Shown here piece after piece: positions 27,129 to 48,191 of a stretch of DNA of 64,000 bases (within the stretch, counting starts at the first letter, position 1; each line of letters opens with the position of its first letter). The notes beneath the pieces are model-generated. The model was not told where the DNA came from. It saw only the letters and a list, made by a program, of their open reading frames with translations, and ran no database searches. The DNA lies in the NCBI RefSeq assembly GCF_018860505.1, contig NZ_JAHKPU010000002.1, forward strand, positions 29,805 to 93,804, given 5' to 3'. The stretch comes from Pacificibacter marinus. GTDB taxonomy: Bacteria > Pseudomonadota > Alphaproteobacteria > Rhodobacterales > Rhodobacteraceae. Made by a program: the position numbers and the translations under genes.

Positions 27129-29021
27129 TCAGCCATTGTACGCGCTCTCCAAAAACCGTTCCACCCGATCTGTTCCTGCCTGATACTCGTCCAAACTGGG
27201 CTTGTCTTCGTTCGGCTCACCCTGCTCTTTGCTGGCCAAGTCGTTGATCTCCTCACGCTGCTTCCCGCTACTTTCAAATCCCGCAGCAGGTATCACCTTC
27301 GGCACCTCCAGCGCCCCAATCTTCGCCTCCAGCGCCTTAATCTGCCCTTGCAGGCCGCGCATCTGATCTCCCGCTGAGGGATATGGCAAATCGCCAGTCT
27401 GCTTGTCGAAGATCTGCTTAAAGAAGCGATCCTCATAGTATTTGATCCGCTTGGCGCGGACAGGCATTTGCGCGTCAACCACCAAGACGATGTCATCCAG
27501 ATCCATGCGCCGCGCCTCATCCTCAGGCAGCAATGCGGTTTCTTCCGTTCGTTCAGACATACTGCGCCCGGCGAAGGGGTTGCGGCCGACCGAGCGCGAG
27601 CGAGTCACAACACGCTTGGTGGTTTTGCCGACGGCCTTGCTCAGCTCCTCGATGGTCTTCTCATCTGAGGGGGTCAGATAGAGCTTGATGCCCGCGTTGC
27701 CCTGCAAGGCACGTCGGGCATTTTCGCCGTAGATTTCATCGAGCACAGGGATGGTCTGGGTGACGATCGCGAGATTGGCGCGGTAGGATCGCAGCGTCTC
27801 GATACTGTCGAGCACGATCGGCATTTTGCCCAAGCGATTGAACTCATCGAGCATGATCATCACCGGCCAAGGCTCGTCCTTGCCGGGTTCATGGTCCTGC
27901 AGAGATGCCAGCAAGTCCGAGAAAAACAGGCGGATCAGTGGCGCGAGCGGTTTCACCATGAGCGGTTCGACCACGAGATAGATCGAAAACGGCGTCTTTC
28001 GGATATCGCGAAAATCGAAGTCTGAAGTTGCGGTTGCCCGATCGATTGCGGGGTTCGACCACTGCTTGAGGCCAGATGTCATCAGAAGCGACAGGTAAGA
28101 CGTCAGCGTGTCGTTGTTGGTCGAGGCCATGCGCATGAAAATCAGCTTGGCGGCTGGATTGACCACTTCATCAGCGCGGCGGCGATATTCCTTCTGCTTG
28201 TCCCCGCCTGATGCGGTGATGCGGTAGATCTCGCCCAGGGTCGGCCGCTTTCGCTCAAAGGCCAGAAGCCCTGCCGCAACAAACAGATCGATGCCGCCAT
28301 CGAGGAGCCCCTGAACCCGATCGTTGTCAGCTTGAAGAAACAGCGAGGCCAGGAGCTGCAGCTCCATCTGCTGGCGGTCGACGTTTTCCAGCGCCGATAT
28401 GCGCAACAAAGGATTGTAGCGATGCGAGCGGCCGTCTGTCCAATCAGTGGGCGCAAACCGGAACACTTTGTCGCCCTGCGCGGCCCTGTGGCGTGCTGTT
28501 GCTTCGAAGTTTTCGCCCTTCACGTCCAGCACCACGGCACTGCCCCGATAGGTCAAAAGGTTCGGGATGACGAACCCTGTAGTCTTACCTCGCCCGGTCG
28601 GGGCCACGATCAGAGCATGGGGGAAGACCTTGGACATGACAAAGGGTTTGCGGCTCTTGGGCTTGCCCATTTTGCCGAGGACAAAGCCGTGGCCGGGCTT
28701 GCCGAAAAAGCCGTTCCGCCTCATCTCAGACATGTGCTGCCAGTGGGTTTCTCCGAACTTGGTCAGTGCGTCATTCATCAGGACGGCACTGAGCAAGACA
28801 CCGGCACCGGTGCTGATCCCGACAATCAAGTGAACGATCTGCATATCGTCCGGATGGGTCGTTCGAAGAACCCCATAGCTGCGTGCCAGCATCAAGAAAT
28901 CGATCTCCGCCCCAACCCCGAACCAGCGGAACGACAGAAAGGCCGACGCCAGAACATACCCCAGCACCGCGCCGAGAAGAGCAAAGCTCAAGACGCCGAG
29001 TGCGATCCGCGTCTTACCCAT
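27129..29021 (-). CDS. virD4: VirD4/TraG type IV coupling protein
   Basis: A 630-residue ATPase that delivers the relaxase-DNA complex to the secretion channel. Two N-terminal transmembrane helices (residues about 8-32 and 62-83) are followed by the ATPase domain: Walker A PTGRGKTT at 141-148 and Walker B MIMLDEFNRLGKM around 390. The TraG/TraD C-terminal part has the usual LAIVTQTIPVLDEIYG. The last 70 residues are acidic and variable, as expected for the tail that contacts substrates. Its start overlaps the relaxase stop by eight bases, so it belongs to the mob operon, separate from virB1-11. Confidence 0.95.
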   Translation of the reverse strand: MGKTRIALGVLSFALLGAVLGYVLASAFLSFRWFGVGAEIDFLMLARSYGVLRTTHPDDMQIVHLIVGISTGAGVLLSAVLMNDALTKFGETHWQHMSEMRRNGFFGKPGHGFVLGKMGKPKSRKPFVMSKVFPHALIVAPTGRGKTTGFVIPNLLTYRGSAVVLDVKGENFEATARHRAAQGDKVFRFAPTDWTDGRSHRYNPLLRISALENVDRQQMELQLLASLFLQADNDRVQGLLDGGIDLFVAAGLLAFERKRPTLGEIYRITASGGDKQKEYRRRADEVVNPAAKLIFMRMASTNNDTLTSYLSLLMTSGLKQWSNPAIDRATATSDFDFRDIRKTPFSIYLVVEPLMVKPLAPLIRLFFSDLLASLQDHEPGKDEPWPVMIMLDEFNRLGKMPIVLDSIETLRSYRANLAIVTQTIPVLDEIYGENARRALQGNAGIKLYLTPSDEKTIEELSKAVGKTTKRVVTRSRSVGRNPFAGRSMSERTEETALLPEDEARRMDLDDIVLVVDAQMPVRAKRIKYYEDRFFKQIFDKQTGDLPYPSAGDQMRGLQGQIKALEAKIGALEVPKVIPAAGFESSGKQREEINDLASKEQGEPNEDKPSLDEYQAGTDRVERFLESAYNG

Positions 29022-33902: not shown

Positions 33903-34739
33903 CTAGTCGCGAAGAAAAACCACCGAAGATATGTTTGGCTTCTCAACGAACACCCCATCGGGCTGAAACGCGACAACAAGATCGAGCAGATTTCTCAAAA
34001 GCTCTTTGATGTTGCGCCTGTAGGGCGCAGGATCATCATATACGTCTGTGTGAAGTTTTTGCGAAAGCCAACCAAATGAAGCCGACCCACCATTCTCCTC
34101 AACAGAACGCATGAGCCATAAATATGCAGGACTTACTTTCAACTTTTCGATGTCGTTCCACCTAAAACTGTCTGCGGTTGTGTTTTGAGGGAAGTCGGAA
34201 CAGTATAAATCCCTTTCTTCAACAAAGATCGATTCAGGCCAGCTAGAAAGAGTGTTGTTAGAATCAGCATCTAGCTGTTCGATGAATTCCTGCATTGCAA
34301 TCAGTCGAGCATGATTGATCTCTGTTCCTTGGGCCCACAGATTTTCGGCTATCTCTTCATCGCGAGCTGTAGGCTTACCTTCCGTGCTAAGTTCATCATT
34401 ACAATACCCAACTAGAGCCAAACCTTTGCCAGTGAGGTTGGCACTCCCCACAAACAGCTTCTCATCAAAAAAATACAACTTTACGTGCAGCGCAGATGAC
34501 AACCTAACTTCAAAACCGGCATCAAGAGCAATTTTCAACGCTGCGAGCGAACAAGCACCCGTCACCACGTCTCTGAGATCACATCGCACTAGCAAGCGAT
34601 CGGAGCTGAACTCATGACGATGTCCAAGTACAAAATCAATACCGGGTTGAGATACGAAGGCACTGTAAATCCAGCACCTTCGTGAACTCGAAAACTGTAG
34701 CTTGAGCCTACTTTTCAGTTCTGCAGTCGGGAGAAGCAT
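33903..34739 (-). CDS. PLD-family nuclease, last gene of the ssp operon
   Basis: A 278-residue protein with one phospholipase D motif: HVKLYFFDEKLFVGSANLTGKGL around residues 84-106 (H-x-K, then G-S-x-N). One motif per chain is usual for PLD-type nucleases that act as dimers. The C-terminal 130 residues are helical and unassigned. The start codon lies one base after the stop of the GHKL gene, so it belongs to the six-gene operon sspB-C-D-helicase-GHKL-PLD. In the proposed SspFGH-like restriction module it would be the DNA-cutting part. Which letter it corresponds to is not certain. Confidence 0.75.
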   Translation of the reverse strand: MLLPTAELKSRLKLQFSSSRRCWIYSAFVSQPGIDFVLGHRHEFSSDRLLVRCDLRDVVTGACSLAALKIALDAGFEVRLSSALHVKLYFFDEKLFVGSANLTGKGLALVGYCNDELSTEGKPTARDEEIAENLWAQGTEINHARLIAMQEFIEQLDADSNNTLSSWPESIFVEERDLYCSDFPQNTTADSFRWNDIEKLKVSPAYLWLMRSVEENGGSASFGWLSQKLHTDVYDDPAPYRRNIKELLRNLLDLVVAFQPDGVFVEKPNISSVVFLRD

Positions 34740-34740
34740 A

Positions 34741-36504
34741 CTATGAGTTGTTTAACTGCGTCAAAAGCTTCTTAATCCAGCCCCCCCACTTTTCTCTGAA
34801 TTCTTCAAGAATTTCTTGTGATTTATCATCCCAGAGCTCGTCTTCAGCCCGGGCAGCGGCTATTAAAAATAAGTTCATAGCTAGCGCCTCCTGCGTATCC
34901 GTGCCCTTGCAAATCTTATCGTATAACTCTGCTTGGAATGGATGCTGAGCATTCAGCGCAATTGTCATTATCTCACCTGGACGTTCAATTGTGTAGAATT
35001 GATTTCCAGGCCAAGCCTTCTCAATAATTGTCACACCGGTAAGTTTGATCTCCTCAACAATCCTATTTAATTCATCGTCTGACAGGTCATTCCCATGCTC
35101 TTGGATCAGCATATCTTTTAGTTTTGCGTCCTGTTCTTCATCAGGAACGGTGTCTTTCTCGACTTTTGTCTTTGTCTTTGTTGGATCGTTTTTAAAGTTC
35201 TGGCCTGCTAGTTCCGCACTCTGGGTTGCCGGATCAGTTTTACGGCCCACGACAGTACTTCCCTTCTCAGGCTTAAGGCCAGAAATGCGGGCCATCATCC
35301 CTTTGCGAGCATTTTTGAAGTTTTTCCCTAACTCGCCTCTAAGAGCGATTTTGTGATCAAAATCCTCATCGTCTTCGTTCAACCCCTCGTGAAGTTGCTC
35401 TACTTCTTCTCTCTCTATGTAATCAATATCGCGGACGGCCTGCTTATTGTTGGTTACGCCAAACAGCTCATCGAGCTCTGGCTCGAAACGAATTTCACAT
35501 CCCCAATAACGTTCAGGTAATTCTTGGGGGTTAAAGTACCCAAAAGAGCCGAAGTCTATCTCCCTTCCTGCTCGAACGAAAGAAATTCCGGTATTAGTCT
35601 TGTAATGATCCACGACAGACGCTGTGTCAGAATTCCTTGTCCACCTAGCGATTTCAGGCCGGATAATCGAATACCTTACCTCAACCACTGATTTCTTGCC
35701 TTTGTTTCCGTACTTGACAGGAATTTTTTGCACTTCTCCGTAAGCTTCGTTGGTAGCTTCATTTTCAAAACCTGGAAGATTGTGCGGCGTCATCAAGTAT
35801 AGGGGGTCATTTGGTAGCAATTTCACGATTTCAACTTTATCAGCGTCCGGCTTTACTATCAGAATTCGGATATCTCTTTTGCGCCCATAAGTATTATCGT
35901 CGTCGAGAAAATGACGGTATATCCGGCAGAAACTTGCCTCCATGCGCTTAACTAGTGTATTTGTTCTCCTAAGGTCTAGCCTATCACAATCTTCCCATAC
36001 AATCAGAGAGCCTTGTTCCTTTACAGGGACGTCAAGGTGCCGCAGTATCTCGCCGGGAATTTCACATTCCTTTACATCATTGGTCATTTGTTGGCCCGAC
36101 TTTTTGACTTCGTCTATGTCGAGATGAGTGGTAAAACATTTGCCTTTTTGCCACGAATAGGCTGTCACTCGCTTGCACTGACTGATTGAGGCGAGCGGAA
36201 GTCCAACACCAAAGCGACCTATACCGGAGCGCGTATTTAGTCTCGTGCCTTGCGCGAACGCCAAGCAGATCTCCAAAACGTCTGGGGCCATACCATGGCC
36301 ATCGTCATAGACCGCCAATGAGCCTACATTGGCAACGGTTCTCTGCACACTGACGTTTTCTTCGATGGCAAGAATTCGAATGTTGTCAGCTTCCGCCTGA
36401 ATCGAGTTGTCAACGAGTTCCGCCAAAGCCATCGAAGTATCGCGATAACCTGCATCTCGGAACGACTCAATTGCTGTGGATGCAGGAAAAAGGTACGTTG
36501 TCAT
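34741..36504 (-). CDS. MORC/MutL-like GHKL ATPase of the phosphorothioation locus
   Basis: A 587-residue protein. The N-terminal GHKL ATPase motifs are complete: N-box AELVDNSIQA (28-37), DDGHGM (67-72) and GIGRFGVGLPLAS (94-106). This version resembles bacterial MORC/MutL ATPases reported beside restriction-type helicases and nucleases. The S5-like domain follows; a charged, disordered linker lies near 400-440, and the rest is helical. It overlaps the helicase gene by four bases (ATGA) and is followed by the PLD gene after one base. Probable role: an ATP-driven clamp or sensor of unmodified DNA in an SspFGH-like module. Confidence 0.75.
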   Translation of the reverse strand: MTTYLFPASTAIESFRDAGYRDTSMALAELVDNSIQAEADNIRILAIEENVSVQRTVANVGSLAVYDDGHGMAPDVLEICLAFAQGTRLNTRSGIGRFGVGLPLASISQCKRVTAYSWQKGKCFTTHLDIDEVKKSGQQMTNDVKECEIPGEILRHLDVPVKEQGSLIVWEDCDRLDLRRTNTLVKRMEASFCRIYRHFLDDDNTYGRKRDIRILIVKPDADKVEIVKLLPNDPLYLMTPHNLPGFENEATNEAYGEVQKIPVKYGNKGKKSVVEVRYSIIRPEIARWTRNSDTASVVDHYKTNTGISFVRAGREIDFGSFGYFNPQELPERYWGCEIRFEPELDELFGVTNNKQAVRDIDYIEREEVEQLHEGLNEDDEDFDHKIALRGELGKNFKNARKGMMARISGLKPEKGSTVVGRKTDPATQSAELAGQNFKNDPTKTKTKVEKDTVPDEEQDAKLKDMLIQEHGNDLSDDELNRIVEEIKLTGVTIIEKAWPGNQFYTIERPGEIMTIALNAQHPFQAELYDKICKGTDTQEALAMNLFLIAAARAEDELWDDKSQEILEEFREKWGGWIKKLLTQLNNS

Positions 36505-38309
36505 TGCTGTGTACTCCAGACATTATTAAAGTAGTTGTAGGCCATGTTTTCGGACGGCATTCCGTTCAAGTTATCGACCACATCAATAACTCTCGCGCGT
36601 TCGTTCCCACCATTCTTTGGCCCCCTAATAGCCCTACCGATCATTTGGGAATAGAGAACGACAGATGCTGTCGGCCTAGTAATGAAAACGGTATCGGTAT
36701 TGGGGGCGTCAAATCCAGTTGTCAAAACACCATAGTTAATAAGTAGCTGCACTTTGCCATCTTTGTATTCAGCGATGTATCTTGCTCGATCTTTTGGATC
36801 AGTTTGTCCAGTAACCAAGCGGGCAGCTATGTTCCGTGCAACACATAAATCACTTAGCAATTCTGCATGGGCAATGGAGCAAGCGAACAAAATGACTTGC
36901 CGCTTGGCGTCTGACAACTCCATCATGCGATTGAAAATCAACAAGTTTCGCTCGTGTTGCCCTCCAAGACGTCTCAAGAAACTCTCTGGGAGTTCCATGA
37001 GCTCTGAAAGCTTGGCCACTTCACTCTCGCTTAGGTCAATTGAGACGTCTGTTTCAATTTTCTCGCGATCAAGACGAGCCAATACACCCATGTCTTGTAG
37101 GTAACCGATACCATCCTCCAGCTCCCTACCGCTATCGTCGCACAAACCGATTTTGGTATTGTTAAAAAAACCAGACAACTCTTTGTTTTCTTGACGGTTT
37201 TCGCTGCGACCTGGTGTTGCCGATAGACCAACCAATTTTGGTGGAATACTTGCCATAGATAGGGAATTAATGGCTATTTCATAGGTTGGCGCAATAGCTT
37301 TATGTGCCTCATCGATAACGATCATCTTGGTGGAGGCCCCTATTTCTCTTAGCAGGCTTAAATCTTTTGATGCAGACGTTAGAAGGGCGTGGATTGACTG
37401 AAAACTGGCCACCACGAATCCTCTCAGCGGCGCATCCGAAGGTCGTTCAAACCCACCCCAAATTCTAGTAACAGATGCTTGATGATCACCTTTGGTTGAC
37501 CAGCTTCTTTCAATTGCCTCAACTGCCTGTGTGCAAAGTTCTTCCGAGTGAGCGAGCCATACAATCAAAGCGGGGCCGGGAGGCTCAGCCCTCAACGCAT
37601 CAACCATCAACTCACAGGCCGTTCTAGTTTTTCCCGCGCCGGTTGGCATGTGCAATAATATTCGGGAGCTAGGGAGTTTCAGCGCAGCAATGGCTCTTGC
37701 TTTAACATTATACTGATACTCATGCAGCGGTGTCGAAACGGGAATAGAATTACTTGCCGGAGGGCTCACCTCTGCGACAGGCGGGAGGAATTCGGGGCCC
37801 AACTCAAGAGTCTCCACTAGGCGTTGAGCACTGCTGGAGCTGCTTGACCAAATTACTTTAGAGCTAGTCCCTAAGATGTGCTTTCGGTCGAAGTCATCAA
37901 CATGGTTCAGCACCATTTTCCTTATCTGGGCGTTCCCAAGTATTGATGAGCCGTATCTTTGAAGAAGAATATCAATCAGTTTAGGTGCGGTAACACGGAC
38001 ACGGAACCACTTTTCCATGTTCTCGAGCGTTTCCATACCTACAAGCTCTGATAGCTTTGCTACACCGAACCTACTAAGCACAGATTTCAGCTTACCCGTT
38101 CCCAATTGTTTGATCCCCCGAGGTTTTTTTTCGTTCCTAATCGTGTTGGATTTCTGCATAAAAAGCCAGCCCTTGCTGCTTTCTTTTGGACACATTTTCA
38201 CTGTTTCCAAATCTGAACCGCACAATCCATCAGAAGCGTTATCTCCAATTTTTGGAAGCTGCTCATTTATGGCAGGCCAAACACACCTTTTGCTGGCCGT
38301 AAATGTCAT
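36501..38309 (-). CDS. DEAD/DEAH superfamily II helicase of the phosphorothioation locus
   Basis: A 602-residue helicase. Motifs: Q-like YQYNVKARAI (198-207), Walker A MPTGAGKT (221-228), DEAH (333-336), SAT (363-365), and motif VI MIGRAIRG in the C-terminal RecA-like domain; TGFDAPNTD is motif V. Residues 60-150 form a helical N-terminal domain with helix-hairpin-like repeats (KLKSVLSRFGVAKLSELVGM). The start at 38309 would overlap sspD by 47 bases; a later start within the first 51 residues is possible. Directly followed by the GHKL ATPase gene, it is likely the motor of an SspFGH-like restriction module. Confidence 0.8.
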   Translation of the reverse strand: MTFTASKRCVWPAINEQLPKIGDNASDGLCGSDLETVKMCPKESSKGWLFMQKSNTIRNEKKPRGIKQLGTGKLKSVLSRFGVAKLSELVGMETLENMEKWFRVRVTAPKLIDILLQRYGSSILGNAQIRKMVLNHVDDFDRKHILGTSSKVIWSSSSSSAQRLVETLELGPEFLPPVAEVSPPASNSIPVSTPLHEYQYNVKARAIAALKLPSSRILLHMPTGAGKTRTACELMVDALRAEPPGPALIVWLAHSEELCTQAVEAIERSWSTKGDHQASVTRIWGGFERPSDAPLRGFVVASFQSIHALLTSASKDLSLLREIGASTKMIVIDEAHKAIAPTYEIAINSLSMASIPPKLVGLSATPGRSENRQENKELSGFFNNTKIGLCDDSGRELEDGIGYLQDMGVLARLDREKIETDVSIDLSESEVAKLSELMELPESFLRRLGGQHERNLLIFNRMMELSDAKRQVILFACSIAHAELLSDLCVARNIAARLVTGQTDPKDRARYIAEYKDGKVQLLINYGVLTTGFDAPNTDTVFITRPTASVVLYSQMIGRAIRGPKNGGNERARVIDVVDNLNGMPSENMAYNYFNNVWSTQQ

Positions 38310-39102
38310 CTAGATCAACTGCGCCTTTTTCCGGCCGTAGAGGATCAACCTTCCTCTTCGCCCTAGCTCTTTCGACGCGCTTTTCATGATCTGCGCGGAT
38401 TTGAGCAATGCGTTCAGGCTTTTCCAGTTCAAGCAGTGTCTCCCCTTCGCTCCATGAAAACGGCGACCCATGGTCGAGAGAGGTTTTCTCCATTTGCTTA
38501 GCCCTCTCGAAGGCTTCAGGGTGACGTTCCTTGAGTCCAACCCACTCAATTTTTTGCTGAAAGAAACAAAACGTGCAGCCACTCCTGGAACGCCAGTCAT
38601 AGTAAGCTGGAAGGCCAAGTCCCGAGTTCTCAAGAATTTCAAAAACGCCTGCCTTGTCGATCCCATCATCTTTGAATGGCAGCTTGGTTATCAAATTTCC
38701 ATTTTTCGAGTTCAAACCCTGGCGAAAATCTTCGTCAGCCCGGATCGCCACATAACTATAGACTGTATACCCCTGCTCGGTAAATTCTGATTTCACCCAC
38801 TTCTCAAAGGGCTTGATCTTTAGGTCTTTCGTACACCAACGCGTCTGGGCTGACGGGAGGAATTGATTATATTGGGCAAGGTAGAACTTAAAATCTCGCC
38901 CAGGGTCCAAGTACCGGATCTTCTTGCCAAGGAAACCCTCAAGCATTGCAAGATACTCATACACCTCGTCTAGCTCTTCACCCGTGTCAGTAAAGAAATA
39001 CTCGATATCGAGTTCTGGGTGAGCCTGGCTCATGTAGATCGCGAGGGCTGAACTATCTTTGCCCCCTGACAAGCCCAATACATGTTTAGTTTTGTCAGCC
39101 AT
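38263..39102 (-). CDS. sspD: SspD/DndC-like ATP pyrophosphatase (PAPS-reductase family)
   Basis: A 279-residue enzyme of the PAPS reductase/ATP pyrophosphatase class. The PP-loop SGGKDSS is at 12-18. Cysteines at 90 (RWCTKDLKI), 176 and 179 (SGCTFCFFQQ), and a C-terminal CLACHK (274-279) are arranged to bind an iron-sulphur cluster, as in DndC and SspD. The family activates the DNA backbone with ATP so that sulphur can be inserted. It overlaps sspC by eight bases. Together with the divergent cysteine desulphurase gene and DUF4007 gene it defines an Ssp-type phosphorothioation system. Confidence 0.9.
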   Translation of the reverse strand: MADKTKHVLGLSGGKDSSALAIYMSQAHPELDIEYFFTDTGEELDEVYEYLAMLEGFLGKKIRYLDPGRDFKFYLAQYNQFLPSAQTRWCTKDLKIKPFEKWVKSEFTEQGYTVYSYVAIRADEDFRQGLNSKNGNLITKLPFKDDGIDKAGVFEILENSGLGLPAYYDWRSRSGCTFCFFQQKIEWVGLKERHPEAFERAKQMEKTSLDHGSPFSWSEGETLLELEKPERIAQIRADHEKRVERARAKRKVDPLRPEKGAVDLDDIYGQQKVCLACHK

Positions 39103-42100
39103 CTAATTCCTCACTCGCGTTTGATTGTTTGATCCTCGCGGCCCCAACTTTGGCCAAAGCAGCAAGGATTACGTTTCTACCAGTGCCTTCTGCAGCTTGC
39201 TGCAACACTTCTTCAATCTTTCTACTGAGTTTGTTCACCTGCGCATTGTCGGAATCCAAAATGTCAAATTCCTCCATCACAGGGGTTGGCCGATCATCAA
39301 CGCTGACAATCAATGCCATTGCGGACCGCTTATCTTTTCGCCCAGCGACACGAGCGACAGATTCGTGTTGGTTGAACTGCTGCGCAAGCAAGGTGAGTTC
39401 CACATTTGCTCGGTCAATGTCGCTATCGATCCAAGCTTTGACGGGTTTGTTGATACCAAGCCCTGCGAGTGCTTCTATCGATTGCAGGTCATCTCCGAAG
39501 CTTGTGAGCTGGGTGATGAAAGATCGAAGCCGCAAGTCACCTGCAACATCTCGGATATTCTTCGCGCGCTCGTTCAGCTCTCGGTACGCTTTCGCAGTGC
39601 GTCCATGAACTTGCAGCTCATCCAGAATGTGTTCGCGCATTCTGGTGAGCATCGCAGGATATGCCGCGCGGATTTCAATTAGCCCTTCTTTGATGTTTTG
39701 AGCGATCTCAGAGATCCCTTGATCTGTTAGAATATCGATGTCCTTTCCGTAGAGGCCAGGAATGTCATCAAAGGCGAACTTTTGTGGATCATTGGAACGC
39801 TTGAAGAGCGCTCTTACTTTTTTTGCATGCTCAGGCAGACGCGCGGTTCGTTGAACCCAAGGGGCTGATGTTTCATATGCCGCAATGAGTGCGCGCCCAA
39901 CTTCCAGCGGACTTAACGTTGAGACTCGATCGTCAACAACTTCACCAACCGCGTTTGCCAACTCAGTGAGGAGTCTCTTCGTCGTTTGGTTCATTTCGAT
40001 CCAGCGCAGCTGGACCATTTGCGGCGCTCTCAGAACATAGTCCACATCAACATCCGAAATGGTCGATAGGAAAATACCTTCTCGGTAGTGTGACAGATTC
40101 CGACGCTCAGCGAGCATGAACAACACAGCAAGGAATGGCATCAAACCATCCTTCAGTCCAAAGGGAGGTGCCCGCCAGAGGTCGTAAACATCGGTGAGTT
40201 GCACATTGCGGTTGCCTCGCTTCTTCAAGAAATCTTTCGTTGCTTTCCAGATAGGTATCAGATTTGCGCTGTCATCACCTGATGGTGGTACAAACTTCCA
40301 TTCGTCGCCTTCTTCTGCGTACAGTCCGTTAGCTTCGACGAGCGAAACAAACAAAGCTCTTTCAGCAGGAAATTTCTCGAATCCAAGCCCCGGAGTGCCT
40401 TCTTTAAGGACGGCGGCATGCAGTAGCAACTTCAGCGCTGAATTGGCAGAAGCCGATGGCTTGGTTCGGTTTAGCAGTTCGTTGTTTAACTTTGGCGACA
40501 TTGAAAATCGACGGTCTGCCATCTCTGAGGCTAAAACTGTGAGGTTTCGGTGCGCGGAAATCCGGAGATCATCAATTCCGGTTTCCCATTCTGCGCTTGC
40601 GATCAATTGCCAGACTTCATGCTCAATCCTACCCCCAATCGCCTCGATACGATCGGTAAGCTCTCTGCGCGCGACTTTGTCTCGATGAATCTCGGGGTTC
40701 GATGCCAAGATATCCTTCAAGGCGGAGTGCTCTCGTGCAAGTGCCACAAGGTTCTTCGATTTTTCGGACCTCACAACCGCAAAGTCGCCCCCCCCCCCAT
40801 ACTCACCAAAATCTTCAACAATGCTTGACGTCGCATTGTCCAGTGAAATGATGAATGCGCCAAAGCATCCATTTGTAGGTGTAAAGCTAGTAACATAGTT
40901 CTCGACTTGGCTTTCGAGCAGTACCTTGAGTTCGCACCAGCGCAGAGCACCAGTTTCACGGTAGTGCCGCTTCGCGACGATATTGGGTGAAGATAAAGCG
41001 TTTGAGATTGAGCTGAGATCGAAGTCTAATCTTTCTCTCAATGCCTCATCCAACGCCACTTCAATGTCAAAGTCGCTCCCGTCAAAGAGAGAGTAAGTGC
41101 CCCTGAACTTTCGAAAAACAACAATCGACGCCGCCTCAAGTTCTGACAAGAGCCCCTCTACCGCAGCACTTGTTTGATTTATTGCCAGGCTAAGTGCGCC
41201 CAGCGTCGCACCTACTCCGGTCTGCTTTTGTGTCAGTTCCAAAATGGCTAGCGACTTTAGCAGCTGCACACCGATCTCACCGCCATCTTTCGCTTCCCAC
41301 CGCGCAATTGCATCCCTTGCATTTGCAAAGTGATGGCTGTCCAAAGACACGGCGATTGCAGCTTGCAGATTGAAATCTAGATAATCCCAAAAATCAGCCA
41401 ATCCGTAGCCCTTCGGATCTTCTTTGCTCGCCTTCTCAAGGTAGTCCTGAAAGCCGAACAGCTCGGAAGAGCCCAGGAAACTGAAGATGCTACGCTGGTT
41501 TTGCCCATAGCTCCGACGCGATGCAGGCCCTAGCACCAATGTTACAAGCGGGTTGAGTGGCCAAGCGCTAGTAAGCAACTCTTTCGAAACTACGGACGCG
41601 CCACGTCGAACATCGGCAAGTAGCTCCGTGGCTGCCTCTGCGTTCCGTCTAGCGCTATCCGGCTGCTCTGAAGCGATAATCGCCTTGCTCACCAATTCAA
41701 TCTGCTCATCGCCAGATACATTGACGGGAATGTCGATGAAGCGACCCTGGATCTTTCCCCACTCATCTTTGATGTCGCGTGCCAAGCGGCTCGCATATTC
41801 TTGGAAGGATTGATGAAGGATACCCACAACGATAAGGCGGCCACCGCTCCTCGACGCCGCTTCACCAAGCAGTTGGAAGAAATATGCATCTCCTGTTGAG
41901 GATGCCGCGTGCTCAAGTAGCTTCCCCATTTCATCCAAAAAGAGGACTAAACCTCCAGAATGTTCGCGGTCGTCAGCCGCCAAATACTGCAAGTATTCAA
42001 TGACTTTTTCTGGCGTATCAAACTTCCTTTGGCGTGCCGCAAGACCTGCATCCTTGATACCATCACCGATCAACTGGAAGGGCTCCATGCTGCGCCCAAC

Positions 42101-42445
42101 GACCGACACACATTTCCAGCCATCTCTCTTCGGAGGGAGTAACTTCCATAGTTCCTTTGCAAACTCCGGGTCAGCCTTGCTCGCAGCCGTCGCGCGTTCT
42201 TGCTTACTACCACTCAACAAAGCGGATAGAGCGAGTGCGAGGCTCGACTTCCCGCTTCCATACGGGCCAGTCCAAGTGAAGGCACCTTGCCCGCTCTCAA
42301 ATTGCTGATGTGAAAAGTTTTTGAGGATTTCCCGTACTGATGATGAAAAGACAAAACCCTCGAGGGCTTCATTGCGGTCATCTTGATCAATTCGAACAGA
42401 TCGCAGGAAGCGTCCATTCACCGAGACAATTTCGTTAAGCGGCAT
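39095..42445 (-). CDS. sspC: SspC-like P-loop ATPase of DNA phosphorothioation
   Basis: A 1,116-residue ATPase. Walker A GPYGSGKSS is at 60-68 and Walker B LVLFLDEMGKL near 167-176. The remaining 900 residues are mainly helical with no domain I can name; large ATPases of this kind accompany DUF4007 and PAPS-reductase genes in Ssp-type loci and resemble BREX/DNA-modification ATPases in overall build. A run of eleven G on the coding strand (40788-40798) encodes Gly-Gly-Gly-Gly near residues 550-553; loss of one G brings a stop a few codons later. The start overlaps sspB by eleven bases. Required for modification in known Ssp systems. Confidence 0.8.
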   Translation of the reverse strand: MPLNEIVSVNGRFLRSVRIDQDDRNEALEGFVFSSSVREILKNFSHQQFESGQGAFTWTGPYGSGKSSLALALSALLSGSKQERATAASKADPEFAKELWKLLPPKRDGWKCVSVVGRSMEPFQLIGDGIKDAGLAARQRKFDTPEKVIEYLQYLAADDREHSGGLVLFLDEMGKLLEHAASSTGDAYFFQLLGEAASRSGGRLIVVGILHQSFQEYASRLARDIKDEWGKIQGRFIDIPVNVSGDEQIELVSKAIIASEQPDSARRNAEAATELLADVRRGASVVSKELLTSAWPLNPLVTLVLGPASRRSYGQNQRSIFSFLGSSELFGFQDYLEKASKEDPKGYGLADFWDYLDFNLQAAIAVSLDSHHFANARDAIARWEAKDGGEIGVQLLKSLAILELTQKQTGVGATLGALSLAINQTSAAVEGLLSELEAASIVVFRKFRGTYSLFDGSDFDIEVALDEALRERLDFDLSSISNALSSPNIVAKRHYRETGALRWCELKVLLESQVENYVTSFTPTNGCFGAFIISLDNATSSIVEDFGEYGGGGDFAVVRSEKSKNLVALAREHSALKDILASNPEIHRDKVARRELTDRIEAIGGRIEHEVWQLIASAEWETGIDDLRISAHRNLTVLASEMADRRFSMSPKLNNELLNRTKPSASANSALKLLLHAAVLKEGTPGLGFEKFPAERALFVSLVEANGLYAEEGDEWKFVPPSGDDSANLIPIWKATKDFLKKRGNRNVQLTDVYDLWRAPPFGLKDGLMPFLAVLFMLAERRNLSHYREGIFLSTISDVDVDYVLRAPQMVQLRWIEMNQTTKRLLTELANAVGEVVDDRVSTLSPLEVGRALIAAYETSAPWVQRTARLPEHAKKVRALFKRSNDPQKFAFDDIPGLYGKDIDILTDQGISEIAQNIKEGLIEIRAAYPAMLTRMREHILDELQVHGRTAKAYRELNERAKNIRDVAGDLRLRSFITQLTSFGDDLQSIEALAGLGINKPVKAWIDSDIDRANVELTLLAQQFNQHESVARVAGRKDKRSAMALIVSVDDRPTPVMEEFDILDSDNAQVNKLSRKIEEVLQQAAEGTGRNVILAALAKVGAARIKQSNASEELDG
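40788..40798 (-). repeat. Homopolymer G11 tract inside sspC
   Basis: Eleven C on the plus strand are eleven G in the sspC reading frame. Loss of one base shifts to a frame reading A-T-L-R-L and then a stop at 40771, truncating the protein at about half length; gain of one base also breaks the frame. This makes a possible phase-variation switch. Confidence 0.7.
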
Positions 42446-43502: not shown

Positions 43503-44645
43503 TTGACCATATACCTTGATCATCAAGCAAGCACTCCGATGCTGCCAACAGTTCGGGCCGCAATGCAGCCGTTTTGGACTGAGTTCCATGGCAACCCGCA
43601 CTCCTCCGAACATTCCATAGGGTGGTCCGCGAATAAGGCTACCGAGACTTCGAGGACCAAAGTGGCCAACCTCCTTGGAGTCGATCCGGATGAGATCATT
43701 TTTACATCCGGCGCTACAGAGGCGAACAATCTTGCAATCAAGGGTCTGAGCACTCCGGAGCAACGGCAAAGTCAGCGCACGACAATCCTTGTTTCAGCGA
43801 CAGAGCATAAGTGCGTTTTGGAAAGTGCCGCCTATGTAGCTCAGACAAAAGGATGTGCGGTTCGAGAGATTCCGGTCAACGGGAAAGGCCACATCGACCT
43901 CGACAAACTGAGAGACATGCTAAGCGAGAATGTTCTTTTGGTAAGCGTGGCATTAGTCAACAATGAAATCGGGACCATCCAAGATCTTGCTTCAATATCA
44001 GCACTTTGCCGTGATATGGGAGCAATCCTCCACTCCGACTTCGCGCAGGCACCAAGCGCAGTAAACCTCCAAGAATATGCAGATATGGCTGACATGGTTA
44101 GTCTGTCGGGGCATAAATTTGGTGGGCCAATGGGTGTTGGGGCGCTCTATGTGAGCCGAGAGCTGAAGGACCGGATTGAACCTCTGTTTCACGGAGGTGG
44201 GCAAGAGGGTGGGCTTCGGTCCGGCACACTGCCCCTTCCCTTGTGTGTTGGTCTTGGCTCAGCGGCGGAGTTCCATTTTTCTGAAGCCGGATCTGCTTTG
44301 AGAGCGCGGGTTGCAGGTCTACGAGATCTCTTCGTAGACAAACTGCAATCGAACCGCGACCATATTGGATTGAATGGAGATAAGCTTTGCTCCCGTCATC
44401 CTGGCAATGTGAATCTAAGGTTCGAAGGACGCGATGCGGGAGAAATGCTCCAACGACTACAACCCATCGTGTCAGCTTCTACAGGTTCGGCCTGCTCATC
44501 GGGAATGTCGGAACCAAGCTACGTCCTCCGTGCAATTGGGCTCACATCGGATGAAGCGCAAGCCTCCATACGCTTTAGTTTTGGGCACACCAATACATCG
44601 GATGAAGTTCTAGAAGCCGCAGAGGCCATTATAGCAGTACTCTAG
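43503..44645 (+). CDS. sspA: SspA/IscS-like cysteine desulfurase
   Basis: A 380-residue PLP enzyme that takes sulphur from cysteine for DNA phosphorothioation. Start: TTG at 43503, giving the family N-terminus IYLDHQASTPM. The PLP lysine is in LSGHKFGG (Lys205), and the catalytic cysteine in ASTGSACSSG (Cys331). The SGATEANNLAIKG motif is at 69-81. It is divergent from sspB, the arrangement known for Ssp loci. Dnd systems use a similar enzyme (DndA), but absence of dndB, D and E and presence of DUF4007 favour the Ssp assignment. Confidence 0.88.
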   Translation: MTIYLDHQASTPMLPTVRAAMQPFWTEFHGNPHSSEHSIGWSANKATETSRTKVANLLGVDPDEIIFTSGATEANNLAIKGLSTPEQRQSQRTTILVSATEHKCVLESAAYVAQTKGCAVREIPVNGKGHIDLDKLRDMLSENVLLVSVALVNNEIGTIQDLASISALCRDMGAILHSDFAQAPSAVNLQEYADMADMVSLSGHKFGGPMGVGALYVSRELKDRIEPLFHGGGQEGGLRSGTLPLPLCVGLGSAAEFHFSEAGSALRARVAGLRDLFVDKLQSNRDHIGLNGDKLCSRHPGNVNLRFEGRDAGEMLQRLQPIVSASTGSACSSGMSEPSYVLRAIGLTSDEAQASIRFSFGHTNTSDEVLEAAEAIIAVL

Positions 44646-44717: not shown

Positions 44718-46745
44718 TTGAAAAACAATAAATCTCTCAAAAATGCGGTTGGAAAAAAGGTAGGCCAGGCGATCTACGTGCACCGTAGCGCGGTCGATCA
44801 CCTTCAGACGAGCGCAAAGGATAAGCTAAGCCTTGCACTGCAAAGGGTACCGGAAAATTTCCAATGGTCAGTGTTGAAGATCTCGGGGCAAAACGACCAG
44901 ACCTTCTCGTTTTTGGACTATCAAGACTTCAGCGCCGTGGCTTTTCCAGAGCTGCGGGCAAGCCTACTCGTCAACCTCTCGGAAGAAGGCGCAAAACTGA
45001 GAAAATATTCTGACGCAAACCCACCCATTCTCCACAGAAAGGAGCTACTCCTAGCCCCGGATCATCCGCTAAGAAAGGACTTTGCAATGCTGACGCAGTC
45101 CTTAGAGAGCAAGGGACTTTTTAAGAACATGGCAAACAAGGGAACGCGGCGAATTTGGATGGAAACACTGGCTGAAGCCGGATTGACGGTCGAAGGTCCA
45201 AACATCGTGAAGAGCGGTTTAATCTCAGAAGAGTCCCCCAAGGCTTCAACCGATGACATGAATGGCCTAGAGAAAAACAATGTTGAGCGACACAAAACGG
45301 CGATCACGCGAACTGCGCTCTCAGCGCCAATGTACCTGCTGTTTACAAGTGGTCTGATCCGTCACGATAGAACCGTTTTGGACTATGGATGCGGACAAGG
45401 TGATGACATCCGAGCCCTACAGTCTGATGGCTATACCGTCGAAGGTTGGGATCCCCACTATCAACCAGATCCTAGTGCTCTGAAAAAGAGCCAAGTCACC
45501 AATCTTGGATTTGTTCTCAACGTTATCGAAGATCCTGAAGAGCGGGCGGAGGCACTTAGACGCGCCTTCAGCCTAACGGAACTCTGCCTAGCCGTATCCG
45601 TCATGCTGTACGGCAAGGCTGACCTGAGTGGCGCGCGGCCCTACCGCGACGGATACTTGACGTCCCGACAGACATTCCAAAAGTACTATACCCAGGCTGA
45701 ACTCAGAGACTTCATCAGCAGCGTTTTGAATGTCGAACCCTTGGCCGTAGGCCAAGGTATATTTTTGGTCTTTCGGGACGAGTTAGAAGAGCAAAGATAT
45801 CTGCTAAGGCGTCAAATAGGCTTCAAAGGGCGTGAGTACCGCTCCGTTCCAAAACCAAGTGCACCGCAAAAAGGCACACCAAATAAACCCAACGAAAAGC
45901 TCAATAAAACAACCATCCGAGACCTTGCTGCTGAGATCAGGGCCTTTGGCCGTCAGCCCGACATCTCAGAACTTCCCAAAAGTCTTGCGACAAAGCTTTC
46001 GCGCTCGAAACAAGGCCTTCAGTATGCGGCAAGTCATGCAATTGCGGACATAGGTCAGAAAGAGCTTGAAGAAATCGTAGCTACGAGAACCGAAGATCTA
46101 AGCCTCCACTTCGCAATGCATGCATTCTCACAAAGAAAATCGTATGGCTCATTTCCTCCTGAACTAAGGCGCGACATTCGGGCTTTCTTTGGCAGCCACA
46201 AAAGAGCCCAGGAATCTGGACAAACGCTCCTCTATTCAATCGGCAACCAAAACCTTCTCCTAGAAGATGCCGAAGCGGCAGCCGTTGCTGGAATCGGACA
46301 TTTAGAACAGGGCAGATTTCAATTTCCCGCTTATAGGCTCCAAGAACTGTCCGTCAGGCTTCGAGGGTTCGTGGCACTCGCTGAAAGACTGGCGGGGGAT
46401 CTGTCCGAAACAACTCTGCTGAGAATACACATTACCAGCCGCAAGTTGACTGCCCTAACCTATGCCGATTTTGAGACATCATTTCTGCCGCGTTTGATGA
46501 CCCGGGTGAAAGTCGAGTTCGACACCTTCGATGTTTCCATCATCGACCATTCAGCAGACAATGACGTCCGACTTCTGTACCTAAAATCCCGCTACATGAA
46601 AGAGACTGATCCTCGACAAGCGGCACAGAAAGCATTTGATCAGGAAGTCTTAGACTTGAATACTCTCAATTTCAGCCATGAGGGACCGACTTTTCGGGAG
46701 TTTGCTCAGACCCTCCTCAAGGCTGGCGTGAGAATTCCCAGCTAG
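44718..46745 (+). CDS. DNA phosphorothioation-associated putative methyltransferase
   Basis: A 675-residue protein starting with TTG (44718) after CCGAGGG. A class I methyltransferase core is present: motif I VLDYGCGQGDDIRALQ at about 220-235, then VEGWDPHYQPD and NLGFVLNVIED (about 240-275). The N-terminal 200 residues and C-terminal 300 residues are unique to the family annotated as phosphorothioation-associated methyltransferases, which occur next to dnd or ssp genes. It is probably co-transcribed with sspA. Whether it methylates DNA in addition to the sulphur change or has another substrate is not known. Confidence 0.8.
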   Translation: MKNNKSLKNAVGKKVGQAIYVHRSAVDHLQTSAKDKLSLALQRVPENFQWSVLKISGQNDQTFSFLDYQDFSAVAFPELRASLLVNLSEEGAKLRKYSDANPPILHRKELLLAPDHPLRKDFAMLTQSLESKGLFKNMANKGTRRIWMETLAEAGLTVEGPNIVKSGLISEESPKASTDDMNGLEKNNVERHKTAITRTALSAPMYLLFTSGLIRHDRTVLDYGCGQGDDIRALQSDGYTVEGWDPHYQPDPSALKKSQVTNLGFVLNVIEDPEERAEALRRAFSLTELCLAVSVMLYGKADLSGARPYRDGYLTSRQTFQKYYTQAELRDFISSVLNVEPLAVGQGIFLVFRDELEEQRYLLRRQIGFKGREYRSVPKPSAPQKGTPNKPNEKLNKTTIRDLAAEIRAFGRQPDISELPKSLATKLSRSKQGLQYAASHAIADIGQKELEEIVATRTEDLSLHFAMHAFSQRKSYGSFPPELRRDIRAFFGSHKRAQESGQTLLYSIGNQNLLLEDAEAAAVAGIGHLEQGRFQFPAYRLQELSVRLRGFVALAERLAGDLSETTLLRIHITSRKLTALTYADFETSFLPRLMTRVKVEFDTFDVSIIDHSADNDVRLLYLKSRYMKETDPRQAAQKAFDQEVLDLNTLNFSHEGPTFREFAQTLLKAGVRIPS

Positions 46746-46823: not shown

Positions 46824-48191
46824 ATGTTCGCATTTTACGACCTTGAAACCACTGGGACGTCACCCGCTTTCGACCAACCCTTGCAGTTTGCGGCGATCCT
46901 GACGGATGACGACTTTAACCAAGTTGAGCGCGTGGATATTCGCTGCAGGCTCGCGCCGCACATTCTGCCAGCCCCTTGGGCTCTCGCTGTGACGGGCGTA
47001 TCGCCAGATCAGCTGATGGACCCTGCACTTCCATCCTGGTTTGAGTTTTCACATCAGATTAGCGACCTGATCAAACGCTGGGCTCCGGCGACATGGACCG
47101 GATATAACACGCTTGCTTTTGACGAAGAGTTTCTTAGGCAGTCATTCTATCAAAACCTTCATCCCAACTTGTATCAAACCCAGTTTGACAACAATGACCG
47201 CCTAGACCTCATGAAGGTGATCTACGCAGTCCGGGATCTAGAGCCAAACGCCCTCGAATGGCCACTTGATGATTTGGGGCGAGAAAGTTTCAAACTGGAT
47301 CGCCTTGCCCCTGCAAATGGCTTTGCCAATCATGACGCCCACGATGCCCTCGGGGACGTAGAGGCAACGATCCATGTGGCATCACTCGTTCGTAAGCGTG
47401 CCCCTGCGGTCTGGGAACAATGCTTGTTGAACCGCGACAAACACCAGGTTGGCCGGTTGCTGCAAAGCGGGCATCCCGTGTGCCTAATTGAGAGATTTGG
47501 CGCGGCACCACCACGATCCTATTTCGGTGCTTATGCAGGCACAAACCCGCAGAACAAGAACTCAGTGGCATTCCTCGACCTGGACCTCTGCGACGCGTCT
47601 ATCATCGATGCCAACGATCGAGATCTTGCCAAAGCTGTCGCTGCATCACCCAAGCTGATACGAACGATTGCGATAAACAAAGCCCCGAACCTTTTCCCAG
47701 TTGCCAACCCCAGCTCTGCGCATAGTTCGCTCGCCCAGCTAGTTTCTGCCCACTCTGAATTTCATAAACGAGTGGGGCAGGCTTTGGCCGATCGCTATGC
47801 GGGTAAAGAGCCCGCCCAACACGTCGAACAGTTGATCTATGACGGCTTCTACAGCGCCGAGGACAAGCGTGTCCTTGAAGATTTCACCGCAGGCGATTGG
47901 CGGAACCGCGCTCGAATTGTCGCTCAATTGGATGACATCCGCCTCAAGCAACTGGGTATGCGACTTATCTTCTCCAATGCCCCAGAGTTTGTATCCATGA
48001 ACTACCGATCAGCAGCAAGCGCTGCGATCCGGGACCGCTGGCTGACCAACGAGCCATCCACGCCATGGACGACCAAGGCAACGGTAGATGAGCAACTCGA
48101 CGAGATTATGAGTGGTGAGGTGTTAGACCGGGGTCGGATTTGTGCACTTCAAGACTTCTATCAAGCAAGAGTTTCAGAAATTGACACCTGA
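46824..48191 (+). CDS. Exodeoxyribonuclease I-like DEDDh exonuclease
   Basis: A 455-residue protein of the ExoI (SbcB) family. The DEDDh exonuclease motifs are seen: YDLETTGT at the start (Asp6, Glu8), the second-Asp region TGYNTLAFDEEFLRQ near 93-107, and the final NHDAHDALGDVEAT near 171-184 with the catalytic His and Asp. A SH3-like middle part and helical C-terminal domain follow, giving nearly the E. coli enzyme's size. It is on the sspA/methyltransferase strand 78 bp downstream. An additional ExoI next to a phosphorothioation system may process broken or invading DNA. Confidence 0.88.
   Translation: MFAFYDLETTGTSPAFDQPLQFAAILTDDDFNQVERVDIRCRLAPHILPAPWALAVTGVSPDQLMDPALPSWFEFSHQISDLIKRWAPATWTGYNTLAFDEEFLRQSFYQNLHPNLYQTQFDNNDRLDLMKVIYAVRDLEPNALEWPLDDLGRESFKLDRLAPANGFANHDAHDALGDVEATIHVASLVRKRAPAVWEQCLLNRDKHQVGRLLQSGHPVCLIERFGAAPPRSYFGAYAGTNPQNKNSVAFLDLDLCDASIIDANDRDLAKAVAASPKLIRTIAINKAPNLFPVANPSSAHSSLAQLVSAHSEFHKRVGQALADRYAGKEPAQHVEQLIYDGFYSAEDKRVLEDFTAGDWRNRARIVAQLDDIRLKQLGMRLIFSNAPEFVSMNYRSAASAAIRDRWLTNEPSTPWTTKATVDEQLDEIMSGEVLDRGRICALQDFYQARVSEIDT

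What the first reader, a model, noticed from the sequence alone, without database searches (positions are those of the whole stretch)
40788..40798. G11 tract could phase-switch DNA phosphorothioation
Eleven G in the coding strand of sspC lie near residue 550 of 1,116. Loss of one G leads to a stop at 40771, about eight codons on. Such tracts slip readily and are used to switch surface and restriction genes in other bacteria; I am not aware of one in a phosphorothioation gene. Switching off modification while the restriction module stays on the same operon would be hazardous, unless polarity also lowers it.
Basis: partly seen in the sequence, partly recalled or inferred. Interest (0 to 1): 0.75.

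Follow-up and report, generated by a model that had tools for sequence, protein, structure and literature searches.

The report
Slip-prone G-tract in phosphorothioation gene sspC
A run of eleven Gs sits inside sspC, a bacterial gene of a predicted DNA-sulfur-tagging anti-phage system; losing or gaining one G would cut the protein short, so the run likely acts as a young, accidental off-switch hotspot, and two other sspC genes carry such runs at other places, one of them out of frame in its assembly.

Summary
In detail: G11 on the coding strand at 40788-40798, codons 550-553 of an intact 1116-aa sspC in a complete sspBCD/sspA locus. Loss of one G gives a stop at 40773-40771 (557 aa), gain of one gives 605 aa. 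It is the only G/C run over 7 in the window.

None of 7 close sspC relatives (91-96% aa) has the tract. It differs from them by one to four substitutions and no length change, in a variable loop. Where G/C tracts of this genome and a genus relative could be aligned, 9 of 11 differ by substitutions only. No length variant was found; no reads could be examined.

Against pure accident: of 43 distinct sspC genes, 3 carry G11-G12 at three different places and none a G/C run of 8-10. In one (L178) the frame stops at the tract and the C-terminal part lies in another frame. The genome of another (L179) also has a type III methyltransferase apparently split at a G13.

Verdict: most likely a young mutational hotspot, not a conserved switch; recurrent slippage switching of sspC stays open and testable.

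The parts
40788..40798 (-). G11 homopolymer (C11 on + strand), codons 550-553 of sspC (Gly-Gly-Gly-Gly)
40771..40773 (-). stop codon reached if one G is lost (557-aa product), predicted
40629..40631 (-). stop codon reached if one G is gained (605-aa product), predicted
39095..42445 (-). sspC, P-loop ATPase of the SspBCD modification module, 1116 aa, intact in the assembly
   Evidence: PADLOC SspC PDLC02780, 1132 bits; a BrxC model also matches, 318 bits
42435..43376 (-). sspB (DUF4007), overlaps the sspC start by 11 nt
   Evidence: PADLOC SspB 3e-98; Pfam DUF4007
38263..39102 (-). sspD (PAPS reductase family), start overlaps the sspC end by 8 nt
   Evidence: PADLOC SspD 3.8e-128
36501..38309 (-). 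SF2 helicase (matches the helicase part of PbeA and RadD), predicted effector component
34741..36504 (-). GHKL ATPase (MzaB/MutL-like N-terminus), predicted effector component
33903..34739 (-). PLD-family nuclease (DrmC/ZacB-like, weak), predicted effector component
43503..44645 (+). sspA, cysteine desulfurase, divergent from sspB
   Evidence: PADLOC SspA 8.8e-121
44718..46745 (+). DNA phosphorothioation-associated putative methyltransferase
   Evidence: NCBIfam TIGR04096, 489 bits, cut-off 150
46824..48191 (+). exonuclease I / SbcB-like protein

Best explanation
The G11 run is a homopolymer private to this sspC, differing from its relatives by substitutions and not by length and lying in a variable loop, and it likely works as a young mutational hotspot at which replication slippage would now and then truncate SspC and shut the sspBCD operon down. 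Shown: the tract, the frames, the absence from 7 close relatives, the unchanged length, the excess of synonymous differences in the gene, the overlapping genes downstream. Inferred: that the tract slips often; that truncation at 557 or 605 aa abolishes modification; that loss of translational coupling to sspD and the helicase gene lowers the effector as well, so that the off state is tolerated; that the switch was not selected for. A slip would be reversible in principle, so this is a possible starting point for a contingency locus and not an established one.
For: Close relatives: 7 distinct sspC genes (L021, L022=L041, L023, L024=L027, L025, L026, L040) are open over 1116 codons, all read TGG at codon 551, and none has a G/C run above 7. 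L021 and L025 read GGG TGG GGG GCC, L026 GGG TGG GGG GGC, the window GGG GGG GGG GGC: same length. Among 20 proteins of 75-96% identity, residue 551 is W in 7 and L, E, R, D, A, Q, N or K in the other 13, and P0002 lacks four residues in the loop. Genus background: of 20 other G/C9+ tracts of this genome (9) and its nearest genus relative G009 (11), 11 could be aligned; 9 differ by substitutions within an equally long stretch, 2 involve gaps. 6 of 11 tracts of G009 (G9-G10) lie in stop-to-stop frames of 300 aa or more, not checked against gene models. 181 codons differ synonymously and 45 non-synonymously from L021. Full-length (1000 aa or more) SspC relatives with four or more consecutive Gly or Pro: 0 of 218, from lists capped at 120 per search. 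In mismatch-repair-deficient Vibrio lines the single-base indel rate rises with homopolymer length (passages of PMC5854121).
Against: Three of 43 sspC genes carry G11/G12 and none G8-G10, far above a composition model, and one is out of frame at the tract (L178); a chance hotspot would hardly be expected three times. Against a genome-wide rate of about 0.46-1.4 G11+ tracts per Mb (my tally) about 0.06-0.19 would be expected in 134 kb, so the two unascertained cases are suggestive only. Trp551 is kept by all 7 nearest relatives held as DNA. The rate of slippage in this organism was not measured and its mismatch-repair genes were not looked for. The 83 members behind the cluster P0001 (96% identical) could not be seen one by one, so a relative with the tract may exist.
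Confidence: 0.58

Rival explanations
1. sspC is a recurrent phase-variable gene: poly-G tracts arise repeatedly in it and are kept, because switching the modification operon off and on by slippage spares the cost of the system or lets subpopulations differ in phage resistance.
For: 3 of 43 distinct sspC genes have G11-G12, at codons 340 (L031/L179, in frame), 550 (window) and 747 (L038/L178, out of frame, C-terminal part in another frame, sspB, sspD and sspF beside it). The genome of L179 also has a type III DNA methyltransferase apparently broken at a G13 (L072; the piece upstream of the tract matched no model) and a lipoprotein-like gene at a G13 (L084), the picture expected of contingency loci. 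7 of 121 shortened SspC proteins end within 60 residues of a Gly4+ or Pro4+ run against 0 of 218 full-length ones; P0225 and P0202 (88% identical) have 10 and 5 Gly at the same place. BREX is said to undergo phase variation through a homopolymeric tract in brxX (one passage of PMC6326788).
Against: No tract is shared between relatives held as DNA; no pair of records with an on and an off form of one tract was found (P0225 has no full-length relative above 57% among the 120 of 2388 hits listed); the shortened proteins are mostly from metagenome sources, where homopolymer errors would look the same; two broken sspC genes have no tract at the break (L035, L036).
Confidence: 0.25
2. Sequencing or assembly artefact: the true sequence is interrupted, as in the relatives, or the tract length is wrong.
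For: The difference from L021 is two bases both read as G next to a G run; 51-contig draft; no reads available.
Against: The assembled frame is intact, which a wrong length by one or two would break; the same kind of substitution is seen in both directions between two genus members; L026 also shows GGC where most relatives show GCC or GCT.
Confidence: 0.12
3. Neutral Gly-rich loop with no consequence: the tract is stable enough, thanks to mismatch repair, that it switches nothing.
For: G9-G10 tracts inside other long open frames of the genus relative G009.
Against: Eleven exceeds those lengths; indel rate rises with length in repair-deficient Vibrio (PMC5854121 passages).
Confidence: 0.05

Closest known systems
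SspABCD-SspE / SspABCD-SspFGH phosphorothioation defence (PMC8092258)
   Same: sspA, sspB, sspC, sspD all present with family-level matches
   Different: no SspE or SspFGH match beside it; a helicase-GHKL-PLD triple in their place; poly-G in sspC is not mentioned in the parts of the paper that I read
BREX with a homopolymeric tract in brxX (PMC6326788, one passage)
   Same: homopolymer inside a modification gene of a defence operon; SspC is a BrxC homologue (PMC12839542 passage)
   Different: there the methyltransferase gene carries the tract, here the ATPase of a sulfur-modification module; no switching shown here
Phase-variable type I/III restriction-modification (PMC12707154 passages)
   Same: slippage in a coding homopolymer would disable the modification enzyme
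   Different: length variants between isolates or within populations are documented there (recalled); none found here

Membership tests
SspBCD phosphorothioation module | SspB, SspC, SspD homologues side by side, with a cysteine desulfurase | tested here: met
   PADLOC E-values 3e-98, 0, 3.8e-128, 8.8e-121
SspBCD phosphorothioation module | single-stranded phosphorothioate in host DNA | not testable with these tools
   needs LC-MS/MS of genomic DNA
SspE or SspFGH effector | SspE or SspF/G/H homologue next to sspBCD | tested here: not met
   the three genes downstream of sspD match neither SspE nor SspF/G/H; L024 has SspE and L178 SspF
Phase-variable (contingency) locus | simple repeat placed so that a length change alters the frame | tested here: met
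   G11 in frame; +/-1 truncates
Phase-variable (contingency) locus | repeat kept in orthologues at the same place | tested here: not met
   0 of 7 close relatives
Phase-variable (contingency) locus | length variants among isolates or within a population | not testable with these tools
   one genome per species held, no reads; no other copy of this allele found
Phase-variable (contingency) locus | reversible change of phenotype | not testable with these tools
   needs culture

The most novel reading that the evidence does not exclude
DNA phosphorothioation is phase-variable: in this bacterial family poly-G tracts arise again and again in sspC, at different codons, and slippage flips the whole modification-plus-effector operon off and on; the L178 allele is an off state caught in an assembly, the window and L179 are on states.
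Probability: 0.27. Interest if true: 0.78.

Novelty: new variant of a known kind. Interest (0 to 1): 0.5.

Why it matters
Slippage switching of methylation-based modification genes is well known; it would be new for a sulfur-based one. My searches for phosphorothioation with phase variation (20 of 30 papers listed), with phase-variable (14 of 14), with slipped-strand mispairing (6 of 6), and for SspC with frameshift (1 of 1) brought up no paper whose listing, or whose passages where I looked, describes it; the library lacks most subscription papers. If true, it would offer one answer to how cells live with a modification whose loss can be toxic: the tract sits upstream of the effector in an overlapping operon, so both would go down together. 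It would also be easy to test by amplicon sequencing.

Tried and rejected
Conserved contingency locus at codon 550: rejected, 0 of 7 close relatives have the tract. Tract born by slippage: not supported, the length equals that of the relatives. Genome with an unusual load of poly-G: rejected, counts are ordinary for the genus. Off forms of this very allele among truncated proteins: none seen; the N-terminal half as query gave 450 hits, of which 120 were listed, at 40-47% identity but for one 638-aa fragment (P0033, 85%) on a 2.2-kb contig that begins inside the gene. Viral contigs: no relative. Solved structures: no sequence match. A structure model to place the loop was tried and did not finish, so the statement that the loop is variable rests on alignment alone. 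Breaks of sspC in L035 (integrase-like gene at the break, my reading of the translation) and L036 (frameshift without homopolymer) are not tract-related. Thirteen G11+ tracts of six genus genomes were looked at; several lie in long open frames, some in GC-rich DNA where such frames are common, and I did not resolve which are genes.

Post hoc caution: the comparison of sspC tract counts with background was made after the tracts were seen; some of the 43 genes are distant (below 30% identity) and were not each checked against SspC models; several gave only part of the gene.

Full report
What is there. The + strand reads C11 at 40788-40798; on the - strand it is G11 within the 1116-aa frame 39095-42445, starting at codon 550. 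The frame is SspC by its PADLOC model (1132 bits), with SspB before it, SspD after it and SspA divergent. Neighbouring frames overlap (sspB/sspC 11 nt, sspC/sspD 8 nt, sspD/helicase 47 nt, helicase/GHKL 4 nt; coordinates), so translation is likely coupled. Losing one G ends the protein at 557 aa, gaining one at 605 aa.

Is it more than chance? Within the window the next longest G/C run is 7. The genome has 10 runs of 9 or more, two of them of 11; only the sspC one is deep in a long intact frame. All 20 genomes of the genus searched have such runs, with 2 to 34 overlapping 9-mer matches each, this one 19. So the tract is unlikely by composition but not odd for the genus. Only this genome of the 20 has sspC.

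Where it came from. After removing duplicates (L041=L022, L027=L024) there are 7. All are open over 1116 codons; all have Trp551 (TGG); none has the tract; the site has the same length in all, with one to four base differences in its 12 bases. The window differs from L021 there by T to G and C to G. L026 shares the second; the tree joins the window with L021 and L026 with L025, so that change probably happened twice. Among 20 proteins of 75-96% identity residue 551 is Trp in 7 and one of eight other residues in 13, and P0002 lacks four residues in the loop. The tract thus lies where the protein tolerates change. The gene itself is constrained: 181 synonymous against 45 non-synonymous codon differences to L021.

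The same process elsewhere in the genus. Besides the sspC tract this genome has 9 tracts of 9 or more and its nearest genus relative G009 has 11. For 11 of these 20 I could align the matching site in the other genome. In 9 the length is unchanged and one to five bases differ; in one (L126) the run is C10 against C5; in one (L006) there is a 3-base gap in a poorly alike stretch. For the other 9 no clean match was obtained. 6 of 11 G009 tracts lie in stop-to-stop frames of 300 aa or more. This is homopolymer turnover by point change and argues against both an error peculiar to this assembly and a special role of every coding tract.

Other sspC genes with tracts. Among 43 distinct sspC genes held as DNA (134 kb matched), G-run lengths fall steadily to 7, skip 8-10, and then come three long ones: window G11 at codon 550, L031/L179 G12 in frame at codon 340, L038/L178 G11 at codon 747. 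In L178 the frame ends right after the tract and the C-terminal part of SspC continues in another frame (a piece of it still matches the SspC model weakly, 1.9e-5); sspB precedes, sspD and an SspF gene follow and the contig then ends. The genomes of L179 and L178 have 10 and 5 tracts of G11 or more (distinct places). In that of L179 one apparently splits a type III DNA methyltransferase (L072: the N6_N4_Mtase part follows the tract in one frame; the piece before it lies in another frame and matched no model, so the join is my reading) and one a lipoprotein-like gene (L084; the lipobox is my reading). Among proteins, 0 of 218 full-length SspC relatives have Gly4+ or Pro4+, while 8 of 121 shortened ones do, 7 of them within the last 60 residues (lists capped at 120 per search). 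Two related ones, P0225 (13 members) and P0202, have 10 and 5 Gly at the same place. Most are from metagenome sources, where homopolymer length errors would give the same picture; I count them as weak support.

How it likely works. A slip in the run would give a 557- or 605-aa SspC with the ATP-binding part (P-loop near residue 60) but without the rest, which holds 48 of 117 invariant columns of a 68-sequence alignment. The modification would likely stop. Because the downstream genes overlap, sspD and the effector would likely fall too. Whether the off state is harmful depends on the effector: SspFGH damages cells lacking the modification, SspE is inactive without it (PMC8092258, first of five parts of the text and passages), and PbeABCD without intact dndCDEA was not toxic (PMC6459918 passages). 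The helicase-GHKL-PLD triple here is none of these by whole-length match; its helicase resembles the helicase part of PbeA. Close relatives show that the effector is exchangeable: L022 and L025 have the same triple at 87-94% identity, L021 a distant version at 26-39%, L023 the same distant type up to its contig end, L024 SspE.

Judgement. The tract is real in the assembly and slip-prone by its length; the phase switch is unproven. I take it as a young accidental hotspot (0.58), with recurrent phase variation of sspC as the main rival (0.25).

Noticed in passing
window 33903-38309: A three-gene set (SF2 helicase, GHKL ATPase, PLD-family nuclease) stands where SspE or SspFGH would be, downstream of sspBCD; a distant version in the same order follows near-identical sspBCD in L021, while L024 has SspE. 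Looks like an uncharacterised, exchangeable effector module.
   Followed up: partly
   Followed up: partly
   Followed up: partly
L072:859-3010 (G121): Type III DNA methyltransferase apparently split between two frames at a G13: an ordinary candidate phase-variable restriction-modification gene.
   Followed up: partly
L084 (G121), around base 1501: Lipoprotein-like gene with a G13 just after the presumed lipobox, rest of the frame in another phase; L087 has a similar sequence next to its C15 at a contig end.
   Followed up: no
L010 (window genome) against L171 (G009): A C10 tract sits where about 595 bases present in G009 are missing in this genome.
   Followed up: no
window 46824-48191: Exonuclease I-like gene matching PADLOC's RTasSbcB model (7.7e-138), next to sspA and the phosphorothioation-associated methyltransferase; also present in L022 and L025.
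   Followed up: no
window 27129-29021: Weak match to a candidate defence protein model (mad8, 3.6e-6).
   Followed up: no
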